Source: Arctopsyche grandis
Taxonomy: Eukaryota; Arthropoda; Insecta; Trichoptera; Hydropsychidae
DNA length: 64,000 bases
Assembly: GCF_051622035.1 (NCBI RefSeq)
Contig: NC_135367.1
Location: 10,576,501-10,640,500 of the forward strand
Reading direction: 5' to 3'
Shown here one piece after another: positions 4,615 through 44,915 of the stretch. The notes beneath the pieces were generated by a model. That model did no database searches. It was not told the DNA's origin and was given only the letters and a program-made list of their open reading frames with translations. Made by a program: the position numbers and the translations under genes. Position 1 is the stretch's first letter. Each line of letters begins with the position of its first letter.

Positions 4615-5522
4615 CAAATTGACACTACTGAATAAAAAGCTTCAACTCTTTTGAATGAGCCCTTCATATATAGTGGGTGTGTAGAAGAAAAGCGCAGTAA
4701 AATCATAAAATTACACAATTGTATAAAAACCATGCAAGCAAATCGCTGTTTATTATTAGCGTCGATTTTATAGACCTCATTCTAAATCTGAAGAAATTCA
4801 TTATAGCGAAAACAAACACGTCTTTGAAGTTTCGCGTGAAAAAATGAGCAAATTATCCGTAAACAAAACATCGATTATGAAGTATTTGAAGATTAGCTCC
4901 TAACATTGAATAGAGGTCAAAAAAAAGTCACTCATAAATATTATTAAAATGCGCATATACATAACAAGTGCCATTAAATATCACATAATTTTTATGCAAT
5001 ATATTTTTAAAAAATCATGCATATGTATATATGTACATACATATATCATATATGATATATGCATAATGTTATATGCAATATAATAGTACATATGTATATG
5101 ACAAAAATCTTTCTCGGTGCTTTAACAATGGTAATCAGTAACGATGTGAGTAATTAATGATAATCATGTGTGGGTGGCTTTGTGCAATATACATACATAT
5201 GTGCATACATATGTGCATACATATGCACATTGCACATTTCATTTGTCGTTCCAGTTCATTATCTTCGTTGGAAAATTGTTGACAAATTGCCGCTATTTTC
5301 CATTGTAAAATTGATTGAAATGTATGTATGTACATATTTAGTTTACATACACACGAAAGTTTTTCTAAGCTATATTTATAAAACAATAAGCATTCCAATT
5401 AACGTTATCACAAGGATAAACACATGGTTGGTTGTGATATTAATTGTTGTCATTTTGAGTGTAAATAAGTTACTGTTATGTTTATAGTTGTTAAATAATT
5501 CGGATTTTAAAAAAATATAATA
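4615..5522. other. No gene recognised
   Basis: AT-rich, with ATATGTACATAC/ATATCATATATGATATATG palindromic microsatellites at about 5020-5100 and 5190-5235. The open frames here derive from these repeats. Confidence 0.6.
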
Positions 5523-5815
5523 TTCAGTGACCTATCAACAAAAGGGTCAAAATGTATAATTTTTGTATTGAATCAAAACTGAAATTAAAATTTTTGATAG
5601 ATAAAGAAAGAAATCACATTCATATGGCGTCGATCCGTGGGGAATTTTTTATATATTAATTAAAAATATAATTTTTCAGTGACCTATCAACAAAAGGGTC
5701 AAAATGTATAATTTATGTATTGAATCAAAACTGAAATTAGAATTGTTGATAGATAAAGAAGGAAATCGCATTCATATGGCGTCGATCCGTAGGGGATTTT
5801 TTTAATGTTTTGAGG
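5522..5815. repeat. Tandem duplication, two units of 152 bp
   Basis: CAGTGACCTATCAACAAAAG occurs at 5525 and again at 5677. The two units run in parallel to CATATGGCGTCGATCCGT and differ at only a few positions. Confidence 0.85.
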
Positions 5816-10269: not shown

Positions 10270-13200
10270 ATGCTAAAATTGCTCGTTTTTCTGTCGGTGC
10301 TTTTCATAATTGGACAGGCATCGCCTACCGAAAATAATGTCGACCGAATACTGAAAAATTTGAATATGGATAACGATACGATGACTTTTGCGGATCTGCC
10401 ACCACCTGATAATCTTGCATTTACATTGAACGAAGATGAATTTGAAGATTATCTGGATTTCTGGCTGAGCAGGCAATATTCCGAAAAACGGGCAATCAAC
10501 CCTTTGGCAGAAAGAGGTAAATTTATTTACATACTGTAATATAAACAGAACCCAATCCAATACAGCAGTCAATATTTGATTTTTTGATTCGTATAGAGAG
10601 ATAGCTTTCTTCATATTCATAGTCATGTGTAACCATTCTAACGAAACGGATAATTCATTATATTTTTATTTTCCATGAAATGGCTAAATAGGAGAAATAA
10701 TAGTCCTTGGCCATGCTAATATGAAATTGCCCTATGATATTACTACGCAGCTTTATCCTCAATGGTGCTCCTATTTACAACTCATGGGGACATTGATTAA
10801 AAGATAATATTACTTACAATATTTTCCGAATCTAGTTCCCAAATAGCCACCACAGGTGGCTCTATGGGAACTGGATATAGAAAATATTGTAAGTAATATT
10901 GTTGGTGTTGACGGCCCCAATGACTATTATTGAAATTATATATATTATATACTGCTAAATTTCGGTTCCATGATCATTGCGCGCTTGCATTCAGTGGCGC
11001 TCGATCGTTGATGTAAAAACTACAAACATCATCATGCCAAATATCATCAAACAATCATGTATAGTTTATTAGTTGTGTTGTGTTGTTCTAATCGTGTTGG
11101 CGTGATTTGAGCGCGATTTTTGTAAGCGCGCAACGGTCTGGTTACAGTGCAATCCAATATATTGCAATTTAAAACATAAATAAAAACAACTAATTTTTTG
11201 TGGCTTTTAAATGGTTTTAGGAAGATTAGGAGATTATGTTTATATAGATTTTGGCATCAGATTATTCAGTTATACTGAATACATTATCATCATTTGGAAA
11301 CTTTTATTTGACGAAGAACCCAAGGCAATTGACATGTTGTTGAAAAGATTTAACTTTAAGTTCAGTAAAAAAAAACTGTAGGTATGTAATAGCATTTATA
11401 AGTTTAAATAAATAAAATTTGTTGTAAAAATATCCACTTGCTTCATTTTGATCAATATATCAAAATAATACGAATTAAACAAATTTTAAAAAAAGTTACA
11501 TAAAAACCAATGTCTTAATGGCACCGAATCAATGATACAATAACCAATCAATTTGAGAAATATTTTTGAAGAAATTAACACGTTTTTATTTTGGTCTTTG
11601 GCGCCCCAGATGACTGCCTGCTTAACCTCGGGCTGGCTCTAGGTTTAACCTTTTGCACGCCAGCGACTCACATGTGAGTCGCGAATCGACTCACCTGGTA
11701 TGCCAGCGCTTCACGGGCAAGTCGCGTCGATTTCTCTTCCAAAACATAATATTTAATGTTAATAATGGTTTTACAAGTACCATCTATGGTGTAAATATAA
11801 AACCGATGATTTGAATTTTTTGAAATTCTTAAAAAGAAATTCATCAAATGTCATCAGGGCTGTTACTTAATTAATTATACCGAGAAATCTGAAACGTCCA
11901 TAAGTTTTCGTGCATGACATGTATCACTCATATGCATCCAAGGTCACACCAAAATTCCAAGAGCTTCGAATTACGTGAGTCAGATCATTTTATTCCTTGT
12001 TTAATTCATTTAAAAATTCTGGCGTACAGGTATATATCAAATATTTTGCGAGTGGCAGCCTACTAGTAAAGTATATAAATTATATAAGAAAAATCTCAAA
12101 AAATAAATGGCAAGCTATTACAAAGAATCTATTTACAGACAGATGTTCTAATATATGTATAATATTCATTTTCAATAGCTCCGTGTACAGTAGCAGTCAA
12201 CAGTCTGACCGAGCCTCAACCAGTATTCGTGCTAGGAAACAGTTTGAAAGTTCCCAGTGGAACTTCTGGAAACTTAGTTTTCGGAGACTCTGAAACTCTA
12301 ACAGTTGCATGCGCGGGAACTGGAAATAAATTAGTTTCTACATCAGCGACTCAAAATCCTGTTCAAGCGGTAATTGAAATTGTACATATTTTCTTTATAT
12401 TTCCTCTACTCCCGGACATGATGTTTTGATTTTATATTACAGACAGTAGTATGTCAATCTGGCACGTCTTTTACTGGTCCAGGCTGGCTGTCGGGCCAGA
12501 CGACTCTTCCGAATGTGAAATGCTCCAGCCACGTTCCGTGGGTTGAAACCAAGATCAGTGGTACTTGTGCAGCCGGCCAAGGTGTTAAAATTAACGTGGC
12601 TGTCCAATCAAATACGGCCAGCTATGTAATAATAACAGCCTGCTTCAAAGAATCAACTTCGGAAGCCCTGTATGTAGAATATGATCAAAATTTGGAAAAC
12701 AATGCCAACCAAGCCAACGTTGCACGACCTGATTTCCAACGTAAGTACATACTCTTCCTATGTCTTGCAAAATAATCATAAAGTAAATGAAAGTATTAAT
12801 TTCAGTGAGATCTAGAACCATTCACAGCTCATTTAAAATAAATAAATAAAGATTATTTGTGGTATGTTTCATATATTTCAACCAGAGGGTCAATGGTATC
12901 CTGGATTGGCTGTCAACACTTTGTACACCCAAGCTTCTCAGAAAGCAGCTATTGCATCTCTGGTCGGATCAGCTCTGGCAGATCAATACATAACAAGTAC
13001 TTCATTCTTGGCTAGAGGGCATCTTGCTGCAAAGACAGACTTCGTCCTGTCTCCATCCCAACGTGCTACCTTCACATTCATAAATGTTGCCCCTCAGTGG
13101 CAGCCTTTCAATGCCGGCAATTGGAACACTTTAGAACAAGTACGTTAAAAAATATGTATATTTATTTACATTTGTACAATATTCACTACTATTTTAAAAT

Positions 13201-13702
13201 TTGAATTCAGAACTTAAGAGCACGTATCGCAAATACTGGTAAAAGAACACGCGTGTACACTGGTACATGGGATATATTAAAGCTGAGAGACAATTCTGGA
13301 ACACTGCAAAGCATTTATCTCAATCCTTCAGCGAAAAAAATACCAACCCCTCTTTGGTTTTATAAGGTATCTTTATTTTTTCTTTTAGCCCATACATACA
13401 TATGTTCATATAGATATATACATACATATATGTACTATGAATGTAAATTTTAGGTGGTTCATGAGCCCAGTACGAACAGGGCTACTGCATACTTGGGTAT
13501 GAACAACCCTCATTTGACATTAGCAGAAGCTAAAAGTATGGCATTCTGCACTGATGTTTGCAATGGAAACAGTCAATTCAGTTGGTTGAATTGGAAACCA
13601 GATAATATGGGACTCGGTTTTTCGATATGTTGTGACGTCAATGATTTCAAAAAAACTGTCAATCATCTGCCTAGTTTTACGGTCAGCGGATTGTTATATT
13701 GA
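10270..13702 (+). CDS. Secreted DNA/RNA non-specific endonuclease (insect dsRNase type), copy 1
   Basis: Six exons splice in phase: 10270-10516, 12179-12369, 12443-12740, 12886-13139, 13211-13366 and 13454-13702. Together they give 1395 nt, or 464 aa. Residues 1-18 (MLKLLVFLSVLFIIGQAS) form a signal peptide, followed by an acidic propeptide-like stretch. The C-terminal half is the NUC domain: SFLARGHLAAKTDF carries the RGH motif with the likely catalytic His near residue 291, and FINVAPQWQPFNAGNW carries the metal-binding Asn near residue 312. Family knowledge: these enzymes are Mg-dependent secreted nucleases; insect members digest dsRNA and DNA in the gut or haemolymph. The usual DRGH is ARGH here. 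Cysteines in the last exon (FCTDVC, ICCD) suit an extracellular protein. A broken paralogue lies 1.7 kb downstream. Substrate preference is inferred, not shown. Confidence 0.9.
10806..10900. repeat. Long hairpin inside nuclease intron 1
   Basis: The arms at about 10806-10852 and 10855-10900 are near-perfect inverted copies (for example TTACTTACAATATTTTC against its complement) with almost no loop. This is a roughly 95-base palindrome. It may be a fold-back MITE, but no target duplication was recognised. Confidence 0.65.
11648..11770. mobile_element. Possible piggyBac-type terminus with palindrome
   Basis: TTTAACCTTTTGCACGCC is followed by the perfect palindrome GCGACTCACATGTGAGTCGC, similar in layout to the piggyBac MITE ends at 29878. 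No matching right end was found, so this is a solitary end at best. It lies in nuclease intron 1, which otherwise holds no recognised gene. Confidence 0.3.
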
Positions 13703-13791
13703 ATAAGTAAATAATATTGACATTTACTTTGCCCGAAATTCTACATGTTTCTTTCTTGGTTACTATAAATATGAAATTATTACATGCTTTA

Positions 13792-13797
13792 AATAAA
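13792..13797 (+). terminator. Polyadenylation signal of nuclease copy 1
   Basis: AATAAA lies 90 bases after the stop codon of nuclease copy 1. The corresponding position in copy 2 reads AAATTTCAA and has lost the hexamer. Confidence 0.6.
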
Positions 13798-13799
13798 TG

Positions 13800-14876
13800 T
13801 CTGAAAAAAATTGCATTATTTCATTAACACTGTAACGATTCTTTTTGGTTTAATAACCAATATTATCGCTTTTACATTTTATTCTGAATATAATAAAATG
13901 TAAAAGTGATAAAACGATTTTGAATTAATGCCCAAAGAAGACGTGTTTTAATTACTAAATGGACAGTGCGCCTTTACAATTCTTCTTTGAATGGTTCTGA
14001 ACTTCTAAAAAAATCTAATCAGTACAATAAAACCTCGGTTTTTCCAGTTTAATTTAGAATTAAGTAGATTCGAATACCAGAAAACTTGGAAAATTGAAAA
14101 TAGAAAAATATAATACTGGACCATATATGTATGTACATATGTATTTCTGTACATACATACATATGTATTATATTAGGTATCCAGACGATAAATTTTGATT
14201 GATTCTGATTCTGAATTTGTAAAAAAATCTGATTAATTCTAATGTAAAATCTCAATTTTTCCGGACAAATGGGAGTGAAGAATCTTAGCTCTATAAATAC
14301 TCAGCAATTCAAGAAAAGAATTCAAAGATTTGCTTTCAGAAATGGTAAAACCACACATGTCAGTTAATAAACACAATAGGGTAGTTAGAGATGATAATGG
14401 CTATTAAAGTGTTCAATTTCGGTAGTTAAATTATCATATCTGGTACATTTTAATTCTGCCCAGAGTAAAATTTATAATAAATAATCATTTCCTTTGAAAG
14501 TATGCAATCATTGAGTCGTGATCAGAACCAGATTACATATACGTATTTCGTGTAATAGAGACATCTAACAGTAAAACACAAACGTATCAAATTTTGAAAA
14601 GAATATATTCAATCACAACTCAAGCCTGTCATACTTCTAGTATGACATTCAAATTGAAACTTGGTATGGCTTAATGAAATGCTTATACATATATACGACG
14701 AAAATATTTTTTTAAATTTTTAAGATGATTCACAGTAGTACCTCCCCTTAATGGTGTCCTCTTTTTACTAACCTCTTCTTTTTTGAATGTTTTTGGATTC
14801 AATTATCTCCCAAGCCCCTCGACTGATCAGACTAAACCTTTTTATCGTGTAATAGAAATGATAAATTTTATACATT
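13800..14876. other. Nuclease 3' flank, no gene
   Basis: To about 14140 this matches the DNA downstream of copy 2 (to about 17985), for example AACCTC-G-TTTTCCAGTTT, so the duplication unit includes about 450 bp past the stop. The rest is AT-rich with ATACATATGTA microsatellites. Confidence 0.6.
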
Positions 14877-15271
14877 TGTTACGTACGCCGCGGATTAAGC
14901 GAATAGAATCCCAGAGACTGTGTGACCGTTCAAGGATTATCTGTAACGGATATCTGTTAACGGATTAACTAAGTGCATACCGTGCGACTGGTATAAGTGG
15001 TTTCAAGGATTAGCGACAGGCTAAGTGGAGATAAGCTAAACAATGATTGCACTTCTCATACCGTGGGAATACATATCCGAATACGTGACTATACAGTAGG
15101 TAAACAGATTAGACGTCCTGAGAGATCTACCCCTTTTAAGGCGGTACGTAGGCGATATCATGTCATTCTGGACTGAGCACTGCCAGTACGTGTATCTCCT
15201 TAATCATCAATAAATGCTGTGAAACGACTGTTGGCCTTTTACTTGGATCCTCCACCCACCCCTACGCAACA
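14877..15271. mobile_element. Solo LTR, copy 1
   Basis: Begins TGTTACGTACGCC and ends TACGCAACA (TG...CA). Flanked by 4-bp duplications CATT at 14873-14876 and 15272-15275. No internal retrotransposon sequence lies beside it. It sits about 110 bp upstream of the first exon relic of nuclease copy 2. Confidence 0.8.
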
Positions 15272-16012
15272 CATTTATATTTTTCAAACACTTAAATATT
15301 TTTACGTCAACTGAAAGTAGTACTTTATCTCTAAAGTTTTCAGATTTTTTCCTATAGTCCTATCACTATCTTTCAGGTACCTATCACTACTCTGGAGGAA
15401 CCACAACCAGTGTACTTATCCGGTAATAATTTAACGCATCCCACAGGATCTTCTGGAAACTTAGTCTTCCAAGATTCTGAAAATTTAACAGTTGAATGCA
15501 TGGGAGCAAACAATAAATTAGTTCATGCTTCCGAAACTCGACCTTCTAAACAAGAATTAATAAATTAAAATTTTGTTATAATTTCTAAATCTTTTCACTC
15601 CTGGTTCAACTCAACTGATGTATTAATTTTATATTACAGACAATAGTATGTAAATCTAGCAAGTTCTACAGTACGACAGGATGGCTGCCGAAGTCAACAG
15701 CAATACATTTCAATAAAATAAAATGCGCCATGAATATAAAGTCAGTTGAAAAACTTGGTAAAAATTGCGCATCCGTTGAAGGTCGTGAAATTTCAGTGAC
15801 TATTGACAATTTTTAAATAATGAAAGCCTGCTTCAAACAATCGACTTTAGAAGCTCTATATGTAGAATATAATCTAAACATGGAAAACAATATCATAACC
15901 ATCGTTAAAAGGCCAAACTTTGACCGTGAGTTCTCTTCTTATATTACTTTCCAGTAAATCTTGGCAGTAGGCAAACTCTAAACCTCGATTTTTATTAGTT
16001 GAACTGCTTTGT

Positions 16013-16151
16013 TATCGTACATCCTCACTTAATTTGCGCGAGCAGGATACAACAGGAACAAGAGGAACAGGCTTTTCCTCCCGTATCCTGCGCGCGCACA
16101 TTAAACAAGGCTGTATGACAAAAAGAGAGATAATTTTACCGCATGCCACTG
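16013..16151 (-). mobile_element. hAT-type MITE, truncated copy
   Basis: Matches the complete MITE at 58560-58720 in reverse orientation, with the terminal CCGCATGCCACTG intact at 16139-16151 and about 35 bp missing from the other end. It lies in intron 3 of the broken nuclease. Confidence 0.65.
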
Positions 16152-16289
16152 ATATATTATATATACATAGTACCGTTTACCATGCACCCTTTTTATCTTT
16201 CGACTTAAGATCTTTCGATTTTCGATCTTTGCCTTCCGATTTTTGCTTTTTCGACCTTTTTACTTTCGGTTCCGTGAGGTAGACCTAAA

Positions 16290-16470
16290 AACTACCTACC
16301 TACCTACATGTAAACAATATAAAACACTAATAGAAAAATTACTTAAATAAATTTTCAATAGATGGCGGTAAATTCTCTGTCAAAAGGAAACATTGGTGCA
16401 AATAGTATATATAGAAGCTTTTTTCTTTTGTTACTGAATTCGTATATACGTTTTGGCAGTGATTTAGCTG
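16290..16470. repeat. Interspersed repeat with CTAC tract, copy 1
   Basis: CTACCTACCTACCTAC then GTAAACAATATAAAACAC and TTTTCAATAGATGGCGGTAA also occur at 44746-44915. A GTAG-type tail on the opposite strand would suit a non-LTR or SINE 3' end; class unresolved. Confidence 0.55.
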
Positions 16471-18119
16471 TAACGTACATACATATGTATGACGAATCAA
16501 AACGACTATTATATTACGGCGAGCGTTATCTCAGACACACATACAGAATAGCGATATTATTTATATGATTACAAAATAATTATTTAAGTTAGCAAGTTTA
16601 CAAGTTTTATTGATAAATTTAGGTGCCGTAAGTGATAGATCGTGGATGCAAAATATCTCGTTTACAAATTTAGTCTAGATATTTCTCATAATTGTTTTGA
16701 TACACATACTCCATTTTTTTAAAATGAAAAATAGATAAAGGTAATCTATCGAATATTGTATCTTATGTATCATGCAGAGCATGGATGGTATCCTAGATTG
16801 AATGTCAACAAATTGTACTCTATAAAGACTCAGCTTTCAACTTTTACCACTCTGATCGGAGCCACTCAAGCCAAAAAATATCTGACGAGGACTTCATTTT
16901 TAAATAGAGGACATCTTGCTGCAAAATCGGATTTTGTCTTTGCTCCATCCCAACGTGCCACATTCACGTTCATAAATGTTGCTCCACAGTGGGGGTCTTT
17001 CAATTCCGGCAATTGGCAGACTTTGGAGAAAGTATACTTTCCTATTTATTTTTTGCATTCTCACTATTAGCAATGTTATTTGTGAAAATGTCTTCAGAAT
17101 TTGAAGAAACACATCTCATATAGTAAAATAAATACTCGCATATACACTGGAACGTGGGACATACTGAAGTTGAAAGACGGTGCTGGAAAACTGCAAAATA
17201 TTTATTTATCTCCTACGAAAAAAATACCGGTACCTCTTTGGTTTTATAAGCTACATATCTATCTTATTTTCTTTTAGCCCATACATACATATGTATTTTC
17301 AAATGGATAGATATATAGACTATGGATATATATTTCAGGTGGTTCATGAGCCCAGTACGAACAGGGCTACTGCATACTTGGGTATGAACAACCCTCATTT
17401 GACATTAGCAGAAGCTAAAAGTATGGCATTCTGCACTGATGTTTGCAATGGAAACAGTCAATTCAGTTGGTTGAATTGGAAACCAGATAATATGGGACTC
17501 GGTTTTTCGATATGTTGTGACGTCAATGATTTCAGAAAAACTGTCAATCATCTGCCTAGTTTTACGGTCAGCGGATTGTTATATTGAATAAGTAAATAAT
17601 ATTAACATTTACTTAGGCCAAAATGTTACATGTTTCGTTCTTGGTTACTATAAATATGAGTTTATTACATGCTTTAAATTTCAATTTTTTCTTTAAAAAA
17701 ATTGCAATATTTTACTTGCACTGAGACAATTCTTCTTGGTTATTAGGATTTTCACAATTTAAATGCGATAAAACGATTTTGAATAAATATCCATAAAAGA
17801 AATATTTTTTTTACCAAATAGACAACACTCCCTCACAATTCTTCATTAAGTGGTTCTGAAATTCTGAAAAATCAGAACAAAAAAACCTCCGCTTTTCCAG
17901 TTTCATTAAAATTAAGTTGTTTGACACCAAAAAACTTGGAAAATCAAGAATAGAAAGAGATAATAATGGACTATATGTATATGGGATCCATGAATGTGTG
18001 CGGGAGGATATTCAAAGTCAAAGTATTTACGCAACTCGTTTAATGTCTTCGCTTCGGGCTCGACCAGCGAGTGACGCCTAAGGCCTGCCAACTTAAAATA
18101 TTCTCATTTATACCAACCT

Positions 18120-19023: not shown

Positions 19024-19309
19024 GTCATTACAACCGAGGTCTACTGTACGCAATTAGACAGATTAAAAGCGGAATTGGTGAAAAAAGGATTTTTTTTGTA
19101 TTGTAAAAACACGCGACATTTCTTTTCAATTTACCAAATAGATTGAAATCAGTAAAACCCAATATGATTCTATTTTCAATAGTCAGTTGTTTTTTGTATA
19201 CGGTTTTTCCACTGCCATTGAAATTATCTTGAAGAAAATACATTATTGCGGTTATTAATCAAGCGAACATTATCTCAATAATTACTAGCATTAAACTTTG
19301 GTTAAAACT

Positions 19310-20491
19310 ATTATTTGGTTAATTCTATTATTTGCTGATGATATGAAGATTTTCAAGAGAATAGACAACCGAAATGATGCTTTGGCCCTACAAGATGATT
19401 TGTTCAGGCTAGAGGCTTATTGCAGCATAAATAAGTTGGAAATTAATGTAGCAAAATGCTCCTGCATAGCCTTCACCAGAAAACTATGTCCAGTTGACTT
19501 TCCTCATTCAATCAACGGACATAGACTCACAAGGGTATCGGAAATTAGGGATTTGGGAGTCTTTTTAAACTCTGATCTATCCTTTAGTAAACATATTGAC
19601 AATGTTGTAGCTCGAGCGTCGAAGGCCCTCGGGTTCGTCATCCGGTCCTCCAAATGCTTTACTTCTATTAAATCATACAAAATACTATATTGTGCATACG
19701 TAAGAAGTATTGTTGAGTTTGCATCCCAAGTTTGGAACCCAGAGTACTCTGGTGCAAGAGACAGATTGGAGCGCATTCTGAAGAGATTCTTGAGGTACAT
19801 CAGTAGCCGTTTTGGATTATCCTATACTTCCTATGAAGATGCTTGTAGGTGTCAGCATCTACTTCCACTTGTCAAAAGAAGGGAGATAGCTGACATCTCA
19901 ACAATTTTGAACATCCTTAACGGCTCGATCGACTGTCCTCAATTATTGAGCAAACTATCATTGCGTGTGCCAAATAGAATGACTAGATGTAATGAGCTCC
20001 TTTACATACCTAATACTTTTTCTAATTATGGAAGAAGCTCATTCATCTGGCGTGCAAGCTCCACCGTCAACACACTAATTTTAACAATTTCTATGTTTGA
20101 CTTATTTAATATTAATGCTATACAAGCTAGAGTGATTATTGCAAATTTGTTTTTCGATGATTAATTTTATTGAAAATTTACGATTGTGATTATGAATTTT
20201 TATTTTGATGTATTTATTTTGTCTTTTTGTTTTTTGCTATATATTATATTATTTTTATTATTTCATAATTTTTATCATATTATTATTCTTATTATTTTGA
20301 TATTTTTATTATACTGTTATTTCTATTTTTTTTCTTTTTGTTTTCTCTAACTATCTTACTCTATTATCATTTTTGTTTCTTATTTTAAATGTTTGAGCTT
20401 TTCTTTTTTTTACCTATATGTGAAAATTATTAATGGTTTACTTCTATGTAACTTAATAAACTGTAAATTTTCCAAATAAATAAATAAATAA
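19310..20491 (+). mobile_element. 5'-truncated jockey/CR1-like non-LTR retrotransposon
   Basis: One open frame (to 20164) starts at LLFADDMKIF, the catalytic box of reverse transcriptase, and continues with NKLEINVAKCSCIAF, IRDLGVFLNSDLSFSKHI and YVRSIVEFASQVWNPEY, the RT thumb and C-terminal region. Everything 5' of the FADD box is missing. An AT-rich 3' UTR ends in AAATAAATAAATAAATAAAA. The intact frame suggests a relatively young insertion. Confidence 0.85.
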
Positions 20492-21169: not shown

Positions 21170-22083
21170 ACCAGGAAGGCCTAACAGGTAACTCCAATGT
21201 GTCTTCCTGGCCAGAAAAATTGTACATTTAATACAAATATTATTAGTATTATACAAAGTACATAAATACTGATACGTACGCCGCGGATTAAGCGAATAGA
21301 ATCCCAGAGACTATATGACCGTTCAAGGGTTATCTGTTAACGGGTTAACTAAGTGCTTGCACTTAGGACCAACGGATATCTGTTAACGGATTAACTAAGT
21401 GCTTGCACTTACTTCCAGGATTATATCTGGACTCTAAGTGCATTTAGGCTAAACAATGACCGTTATTAGTCCTTTCTCAGAATCGGTACGGGGAGACCTA
21501 ATGTCGTGGGAATACATATCCGAATACGTGACTATACAATAGGTAAACAGATTAGACGTCCTGAGAGATCTACCCTTTATAAGGCGGTACGTAGGCGATA
21601 TCAGGTCATTCTGGACTGAGCACTGCCAGTGCGTGTATCTCCTTAATCATCAATAAATGCTGTGAAACGACTAAGGCCTTTTACTTGGATCCTCCACCCA
21701 CCCCTACGCAACAATACATATCAATTAATATCCACAGAGACATCTATGGTCAAATTTGTAAATTTGCAGCATTTTCAACAATTCATCGGAATTCAGTAAA
21801 TAGATATGAATTAACATCTACAGAGACATTTATGATCAAATTTGTAAATTTGCAACATTTTATACAATTCAACGAAATTCGAAATTGCTGAAAACTCGAG
21901 ATTTTGCGAGAAAATGGGCAAGGAAGCCAATTTGTTGGAACCGTATCAATGAAAATCAGATAAATTGGCAAACTCTGATAGGAAACGATCGACCTGGAGT
22001 CAAAAATCACAACCAGTGAGATTTGAACCCGTGACCAATCTGTTCAAAGCATTATTGTATGTTAACCACTAGTCTATTCTGCT
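21170..22083 (-). mobile_element. tRNA-derived SINE, copy 2, split by a solo LTR
   Basis: Minus-strand SINE: A box complement GTTAACCACTAGTC at 22061, B box complement TTTGAACCC at 22022, 3' hairpin at 21170-21211. The sequence is interrupted at 21270-21713 by an LTR, and resumes exactly where the uninterrupted copy at 59641 predicts. Confidence 0.75.
21270..21713. mobile_element. Solo LTR, copy 2, inside a SINE
   Basis: Begins TGATACGTACGCCGCGG and ends TACGCAACA. It is flanked by perfect 4-bp duplications ATAC (21266-21269 and 21714-21717). It is 49 bp longer than the LTR at 14877, with an internal duplication around GTTAACGG-TTAACTAAGTGC. Confidence 0.85.
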
Positions 22084-44745: not shown

Positions 44746-44915
44746 GCCTACCTACCTACCTACGTGTAAACAATATAAAACACCAATATAAAAAATAATT
44801 AATTAAATAAATTTTCAATAGATGGCAGTAAATTCTCTGCCAAGAGGAAACATTGGTAACCAACAGTATATATATATAAGTTTTTTATTTTATTATTGTA
44901 TTCGTATATACGTCG
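44746..44915. repeat. Interspersed repeat with CTAC tract, copy 2
   Basis: CTACCTACCTACCTACGTG, GTAAACAATATAAAACACC, TTTTCAATAGATGGCAGTAA; partner of 16290-16470. Confidence 0.55.

What the first reader, a model, noticed from the sequence alone, without database searches (positions are those of the whole stretch)
13400..17660. Last exon of a broken nuclease duplicate overwritten by gene conversion
The two nuclease copies differ strongly over exons 2-5, and copy 2 carries a stop and two dead donors. Yet the final 249-bp exon differs at one base only, and the preceding intron shares GCCCATACATACATATG. Similarity drops again in the 3' UTR. A short, recent conversion tract from the live to the dead copy (about 17260-17660) explains this better than uniform divergence.
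Basis: partly seen in the sequence, partly recalled or inferred. Interest (0 to 1): 0.7.

Follow-up and report, generated by a model that had tools for sequence, protein, structure and literature searches.

The report
Gene conversion in a broken nuclease copy
A working nuclease gene sits beside an old broken duplicate, and the last exon of the two is almost letter-for-letter identical although the rest has drifted far apart, best explained by one copy having been pasted over the other fairly recently: a clear but ordinary case of gene conversion.

Summary
Copy 1 is an intact six-exon gene (10270-13702, 464 aa, Endonuclease_NS). Copy 2 (15377-17587) has no exon 1 that I could find in the window, a stop in exon 3 and lost donors at exons 2 and 5. 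Exons 2-5 are 66-73% identical; the last exon is 248/249. Fourfold sites: 29/29 in exon 6, 46/69 in exons 2-5. Special constraint on the last exon fails its control; no third close copy was found. Interlocus gene conversion is the best explanation. Live-to-dead is likelier but unproven: no related species is held. Two details: the left edge falls on the intron-exon junction (13452-13458), and the 3' flank (298/376) is somewhat more alike than fourfold sites, hinting at older conversion. Conversion of a pseudogene is well known; the modest oddity is the divergence (about 20-35%) of most of the surrounding sequence. Interest is low.

The parts
10270..10516 (+). Copy 1 exon 1 (ATG, hydrophobic signal-like N-terminus)
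   Evidence: signal peptide judged by eye, no predictor run
12179..12369 (+). Copy 1 exon 2
12443..12740 (+). Copy 1 exon 3
12886..13139 (+). Copy 1 exon 4, with the RGH motif of the nuclease domain (motif name recalled)
13211..13366 (+). Copy 1 exon 5, ends in intact GT donor
13454..13702 (+). Copy 1 exon 6, coding part with stop
13452..13718 (+). Conversion tract in copy 1 (266/267 to copy 2)
15377..15553 (+). Copy 2 exon 2, donor GT lost (limits approximate)
   Evidence: limits from homology to copy 1
15640..15925 (+). Copy 2 exon 3, in-frame stop near 15814
   Evidence: limits from homology to copy 1
16778..17031 (+). Copy 2 exon 4, open frame, matches Endonuclease_NS
17098..17250 (+). Copy 2 exon 5, donor GT lost (reads CT)
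17337..17603 (+). Conversion tract in copy 2, holding exon 6 (17339-17587)
13378..13405 (+). 28-bp identical run in intron 5 (copy 2: 17267-17294), separated from the tract by diverged sequence
   Evidence: p 0.048 against permuted background
13719..14135 (+). 3' flank homologous to copy 2 (to about 17985), 298/376 identical; no homology beyond

Best explanation
A secreted Endonuclease_NS gene (insect dsRNase type) was duplicated in tandem long ago, apparently from exon 2 onward. Copy 2 drifted, lost two splice donors and gained a stop. Much later, repair of a break in one copy used the neighbour 3.9 kb away as template and copied about 267 bp: the coding part of the last exon, the two acceptor bases before it and 16 bp of 3' UTR. 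Live copy 1 was most likely the donor and dead copy 2 the recipient. Shown: the plateau, its edges, the lesions, no other close copy found in the assembly. Inferred: the repair mechanism, the direction, the age and that the gene is an insect dsRNase.
For: Plateau 266/267 between 27/42 on the left and 63/72 on the right; longest stretch with at most one mismatch 267 vs maximum 70 in 5000 permutations, twice the log-likelihood gain over uniform divergence 127.5 (sites of 12870-14135). Synonymous change: exon 6 0 of 48.2 sites, fourfold 29/29; exons 2-5 pS 0.467, fourfold 46/69 (Fisher p 1.3e-4). Control, another tandem pair in the genome (C10): exon 4, 5, 6 equivalents 52/90, 28/51, 41/78 aa, no last-exon plateau. 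Exon 6 DNA matches 2 places at E <= 0.001, both on C13; its protein matches 7 places at E <= 1, the 5 others at 29-35%. Lesions mostly predate the tract: 0.12-0.23 expected since, 3 seen, P 0.0002-0.0017 at K = 1/267. Tract length lies in the 200-300 bp range of experiments (PMC3924818, passages).
Against: Conversion is reported to occur mainly above 80% identity, at a low rate below (PMC3924818, passages); outside the tract the exons are at 66-73% and most of the 3' flank at 73-79%, only 13719-13790 at 87.5%. At the upper confidence limit of K (0.0207) the lesions could have arisen after conversion (P 0.027-0.14). No outgroup, no population data, no reads.
Confidence: 0.86

Rival explanations
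1. Recurrent conversion (a variant of the best explanation, not exclusive of it): the 3' end of the pair was kept alike by repeated conversion since the duplication, and exon 6 is the last remnant of a shrinking homogenised zone.
For: Identity falls in steps on the right: 266/267, 63/72, then 60/82 and 175/222; the 3' flank as a whole (298/376) exceeds fourfold sites of exons 2-5 (46/69), p 0.028. It would ease the low-identity problem.
Against: The step between near and far flank is not significant (p 0.074); intron 2, outside the zone, is also at 55/70; identity of gapped non-coding sequence is inflated (shuffled controls 0.61-0.65). The left edge is abrupt.
Confidence: 0.3
2. Conversion in the other direction, dead copy 2 to live copy 1 (also a variant).
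For: Exon 6 is open in both; exons 2, 4 and 5 of copy 2 each have a frame free of stops, so its exon 6 could have been intact too. Copy 2's exon 4 is slightly closer to the C10 paralogues than copy 1's (37/83 and 33/83 against 32/84 and 32/84), so copy 2 is not a strongly decayed sequence. GC3 does not discriminate.
Against: A broken copy without constraint is a poorer source of an intact exon, and the change had to be tolerated in a working gene.
Confidence: 0.25
3. Conversion templated by a cDNA of copy 1, since the left edge lies on the intron-exon junction.
For: Left breakpoint interval 13452-13458 contains the exon start 13454.
Against: One event; the 42 aligned bases of intron next to the tract are only 27/42 identical, so loss of homology explains the stop equally well. 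No processed copy showed in the searches with exon 6; a whole spliced cDNA was not searched against the genome.
Confidence: 0.06
4. Strong sequence constraint on the last exon.
For: The last exon stays an open frame in a dead gene.
Against: 0 of 48.2 synonymous sites changed; against the two C10 paralogues copy 1 has 25/78 and 25/78 in exon 6, 32/84 and 32/84 in exon 4, 14/51 and 17/51 in exon 5, and the C10 pair shows no last-exon excess.
Confidence: 0.02
5. Assembly error or gap fill at copy 2.
For: No reads were available to test it.
Against: No N in the window; the sequence on both sides of each tract is copy-specific and the tract carries one difference of its own.
Confidence: 0.05

Closest known systems
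Interlocus (ectopic) gene conversion between tandem duplicates, including gene-pseudogene pairs (e.g. GBA1 and its pseudogene, the GSTT2 pair)
   Same: Short near-identical tract in neighbouring direct repeats; about 270 bp
   Different: Most of the surrounding sequence here is 20-35% diverged, more than in those pairs (GSTT2 duplicates 99.4% alike, PMC3375281, passages; GBA1 pair 'high sequence identity', PMC12075325, start of abstract in a listing)
Insect dsRNase family (Endonuclease_NS, e.g. CmdsRNase, 464 aa)
   Same: 464 aa, Endonuclease_NS domain in the C-terminal half, hydrophobic N-terminus; several Endonuclease_NS places in the genome (10 matching stretches on five contigs)
   Different: Species unknown; no activity data; not compared by sequence with any named dsRNase (only with passages about them: PMC8999895; PMC9117646)

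Membership tests
Interlocus gene conversion tract | Stretch of identity longer than chance given background divergence | tested here: met
   267 vs maximum 70 in 5000 permutations
Interlocus gene conversion tract | Silent sites share the identity | tested here: met
   29/29 fourfold sites in exon 6, 46/69 in exons 2-5
Interlocus gene conversion tract | Definable edges | tested here: met
   left 13452-13458, right 13712-13729; left edge abrupt (27/42), right edge milder (63/72)
Interlocus gene conversion tract | Gene tree of the tract disagrees with that of the flanks across species | not testable with these tools
   the tool states that the genome has no relatives held
Pseudogene (copy 2) | Disabling lesions | tested here: met
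   one stop, two lost donors; no exon 1 found in the window
Insect dsRNase | Endonuclease_NS domain | tested here: met
   PF01223 E 1.5e-38, residues 199-446
Insect dsRNase | Signal peptide | tested here: inconclusive
   hydrophobic N-terminus, by eye
Insect dsRNase | Degrades dsRNA | not testable with these tools
   needs an enzyme assay

The most novel reading that the evidence does not exclude
Conversion between copies that were only about 65-80% identical over most of their length, ended exactly at a splice junction because the template was a spliced cDNA (RNA-templated repair) and not the neighbouring gene itself.
Probability: 0.05. Interest if true: 0.55.

Novelty: new member of a known kind. 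Interest (0 to 1): 0.22.

Why it matters
It is a clean example that a dead duplicate can look young in one part, so dating such duplicates from one exon misleads. If a sister species showed that flanking identity was already this low at the time of the event, it would add a data point on how diverged sequences can be and still convert.

Tried and rejected
Special constraint on the last exon: rejected (only the two C10 paralogues were aligned, not those on C1, C3, C9 and C11). Third donor in the genome: none found, with the tool's caveat that counts are lower bounds. Direction from base composition: uninformative (GC3 0.362 vs 0.343 in exons 2-5, 0.402 in exon 6). Direction from the one difference (K/R): both aligned C10 paralogues carry another residue there. 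The 28-bp intron run as part of the tract: weak. Intron divergence as a clock: shuffled controls give 0.61-0.65 identity, and intron 4 (41/64) is no better than that. NCBIfam gave no match for the two exon 4 frames; PDB sequence search of the exon 4 frame gave none, of the whole protein 10 distinct sequences at E <= 1, best CG8862, E 2.1e-5. Literature, as searched: 'dsRNase + gene conversion + insect' 0 papers; 'dsRNase + gene duplication + tandem' 2, neither opened; 'gene conversion + pseudogene + conversion tract + last exon' 3, one opened for passages; 'retroconversion + cDNA + gene conversion + exon' 0. PMC3924832 was seen in passages only and carries no claim here.

Full report
What is there. 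The window lies in a 475.7 Mb genome of 189 contigs, eukaryotic by its introns. Copy 1 is an intact gene: exons 10270-10516, 12179-12369, 12443-12740, 12886-13139, 13211-13366, 13454-13702, with AG acceptors and GT donors at each intron, 464 aa, and the Pfam Endonuclease_NS domain at residues 199-446, E 1.5e-38. Length and layout fit the insect dsRNase family (CmdsRNase, 464 aa with signal peptide and endonuclease NS domain: PMC8999895, passages). That the organism is an insect, and that the gene is a dsRNase, is inference.

Copy 2 (15377-17587, same strand) aligns from exon 2 to about 17985. No exon 1 was found for it in the window (best chance-level matches E about 0.05). Each remaining exon has one frame that follows copy 1, and the gaps in the codon alignment were made on the protein level; exon 3 has a stop near 15814, the exon 2 donor is gone and the exon 5 donor reads CT. 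dN/dS of 0.45 over exons 2-5 averages both lineages; together with the mostly open frames it suggests that copy 2 was a working gene for part of its life.

The plateau. Aligned identity is 119/176 in exon 2 and 182/278 in exon 3; 186/254 in exon 4, 37/66 in intron 4, 110/153 in exon 5, 27/42 in the last part of intron 5, 266/267 in 13452-13718, 63/72 in 13719-13790, 60/82 in 13791-13904 and 175/222 in 13905-14135. Some figures depend on the aligner: exon 5 117/149 and intron 4 41/64. Over the 1212 aligned sites of 12870-14135 the longest stretch with at most one mismatch is 267 bases; 5000 permutations reached 70 at most; the best single-tract model gains 127.5 in twice the log-likelihood over uniform divergence, with the left edge at 13452-13458 and the right edge at 13712-13729. 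The shared intron motif lies in a 28-bp identical run set apart from the tract by 42 aligned bases at 64%; a run that long is seen in 4.8% of background permutations.

Is it conversion? Silent sites say so: 0 of 48.2 synonymous sites differ in exon 6 and all 29 fourfold sites agree, against pS 0.467 and 46/69 in exons 2-5 (Fisher p 1.3e-4). Protein-level constraint cannot do this. Nor is the last exon specially conserved: against the two C10 paralogues copy 1 has 25/78 and 25/78 in exon 6, 32/84 and 32/84 in exon 4, 14/51 and 17/51 in exon 5; those two, a tandem pair themselves, have 52/90, 28/51 and 41/78 in the exon 4, 5 and 6 equivalents. No third close copy was found: exon 6 DNA hits 2 places and the protein 7, of which the 5 others are at 29-35% identity; the tool's counts are lower bounds.

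Age and direction. One difference in 267 bases gives K 0.0037 (95% 0.0001-0.0207). On that scale 0.12-0.23 disabling changes (stops and splice-site bases only) would be expected in copy 2 since the event; three are seen, P 0.0002-0.0017; at the upper limit of K the P is 0.027-0.14. So copy 2 was probably already broken, which makes copy 1 the likelier donor. This remains inference: base composition and the single difference do not discriminate and no relative is held. Against a long-dead copy 2, its exon 4 is if anything slightly closer to the C10 paralogues than copy 1's.

Mechanism. Direct repeats 3.9 kb apart and a tract of 267 bp fit repair-templated copying. Experiments give mostly 200-300 bp tracts; conversion is mainly seen above 80% identity, at a low rate below (PMC3924818, passages). 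Most of the sequence here lies below that, so either exon 6 was more alike before the last event (recurrent conversion; the 3' flank at 298/376 exceeds fourfold sites, p 0.028, though fourfold sites could be counted only in conserved codons and gapped flanks are inflated) or this is one of the rare events.

Verdict. The finding is right in substance and ordinary in kind.

Noticed in passing
window 14877-15271 and 21270-21713: Dispersed repeat, 76% identical over 460 aligned columns, one copy between the two nuclease copies.
   Followed up: no
window 16015-16169 and 58687-58541; 16292-16451 and 44748-44913: Intron 3 of copy 2 is enlarged (about 850 bp against 145) and holds segments repeated elsewhere in the window at 88% and 86% identity, probably transposon pieces.
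   Followed up: no
window 19295-20161: Long open frame resembling the end of a non-LTR retrotransposon reverse transcriptase (by eye).
   Followed up: no
window 13863-13912: Short inverted repeat (50 bp, 84%) in the 3' flank of copy 1; the copy 2 alignment has gaps there.
   Followed up: no
L003 and L004 (contig C10): A second tandem pair of Endonuclease_NS genes in which the equivalents of exons 4-6 form one uninterrupted open frame, unlike the window pair.
   Followed up: partly
L003 3546-3609 and L004 1-64: These two fetched loci overlap on contig C10 (4516662-4520270 and 4520207-4523734), so the 100% match of 64 bases is the same DNA, not a repeat.
   Followed up: yes
window 5511-5804: Direct tandem dimer of a 152-bp unit, 93% alike.
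   Followed up: no
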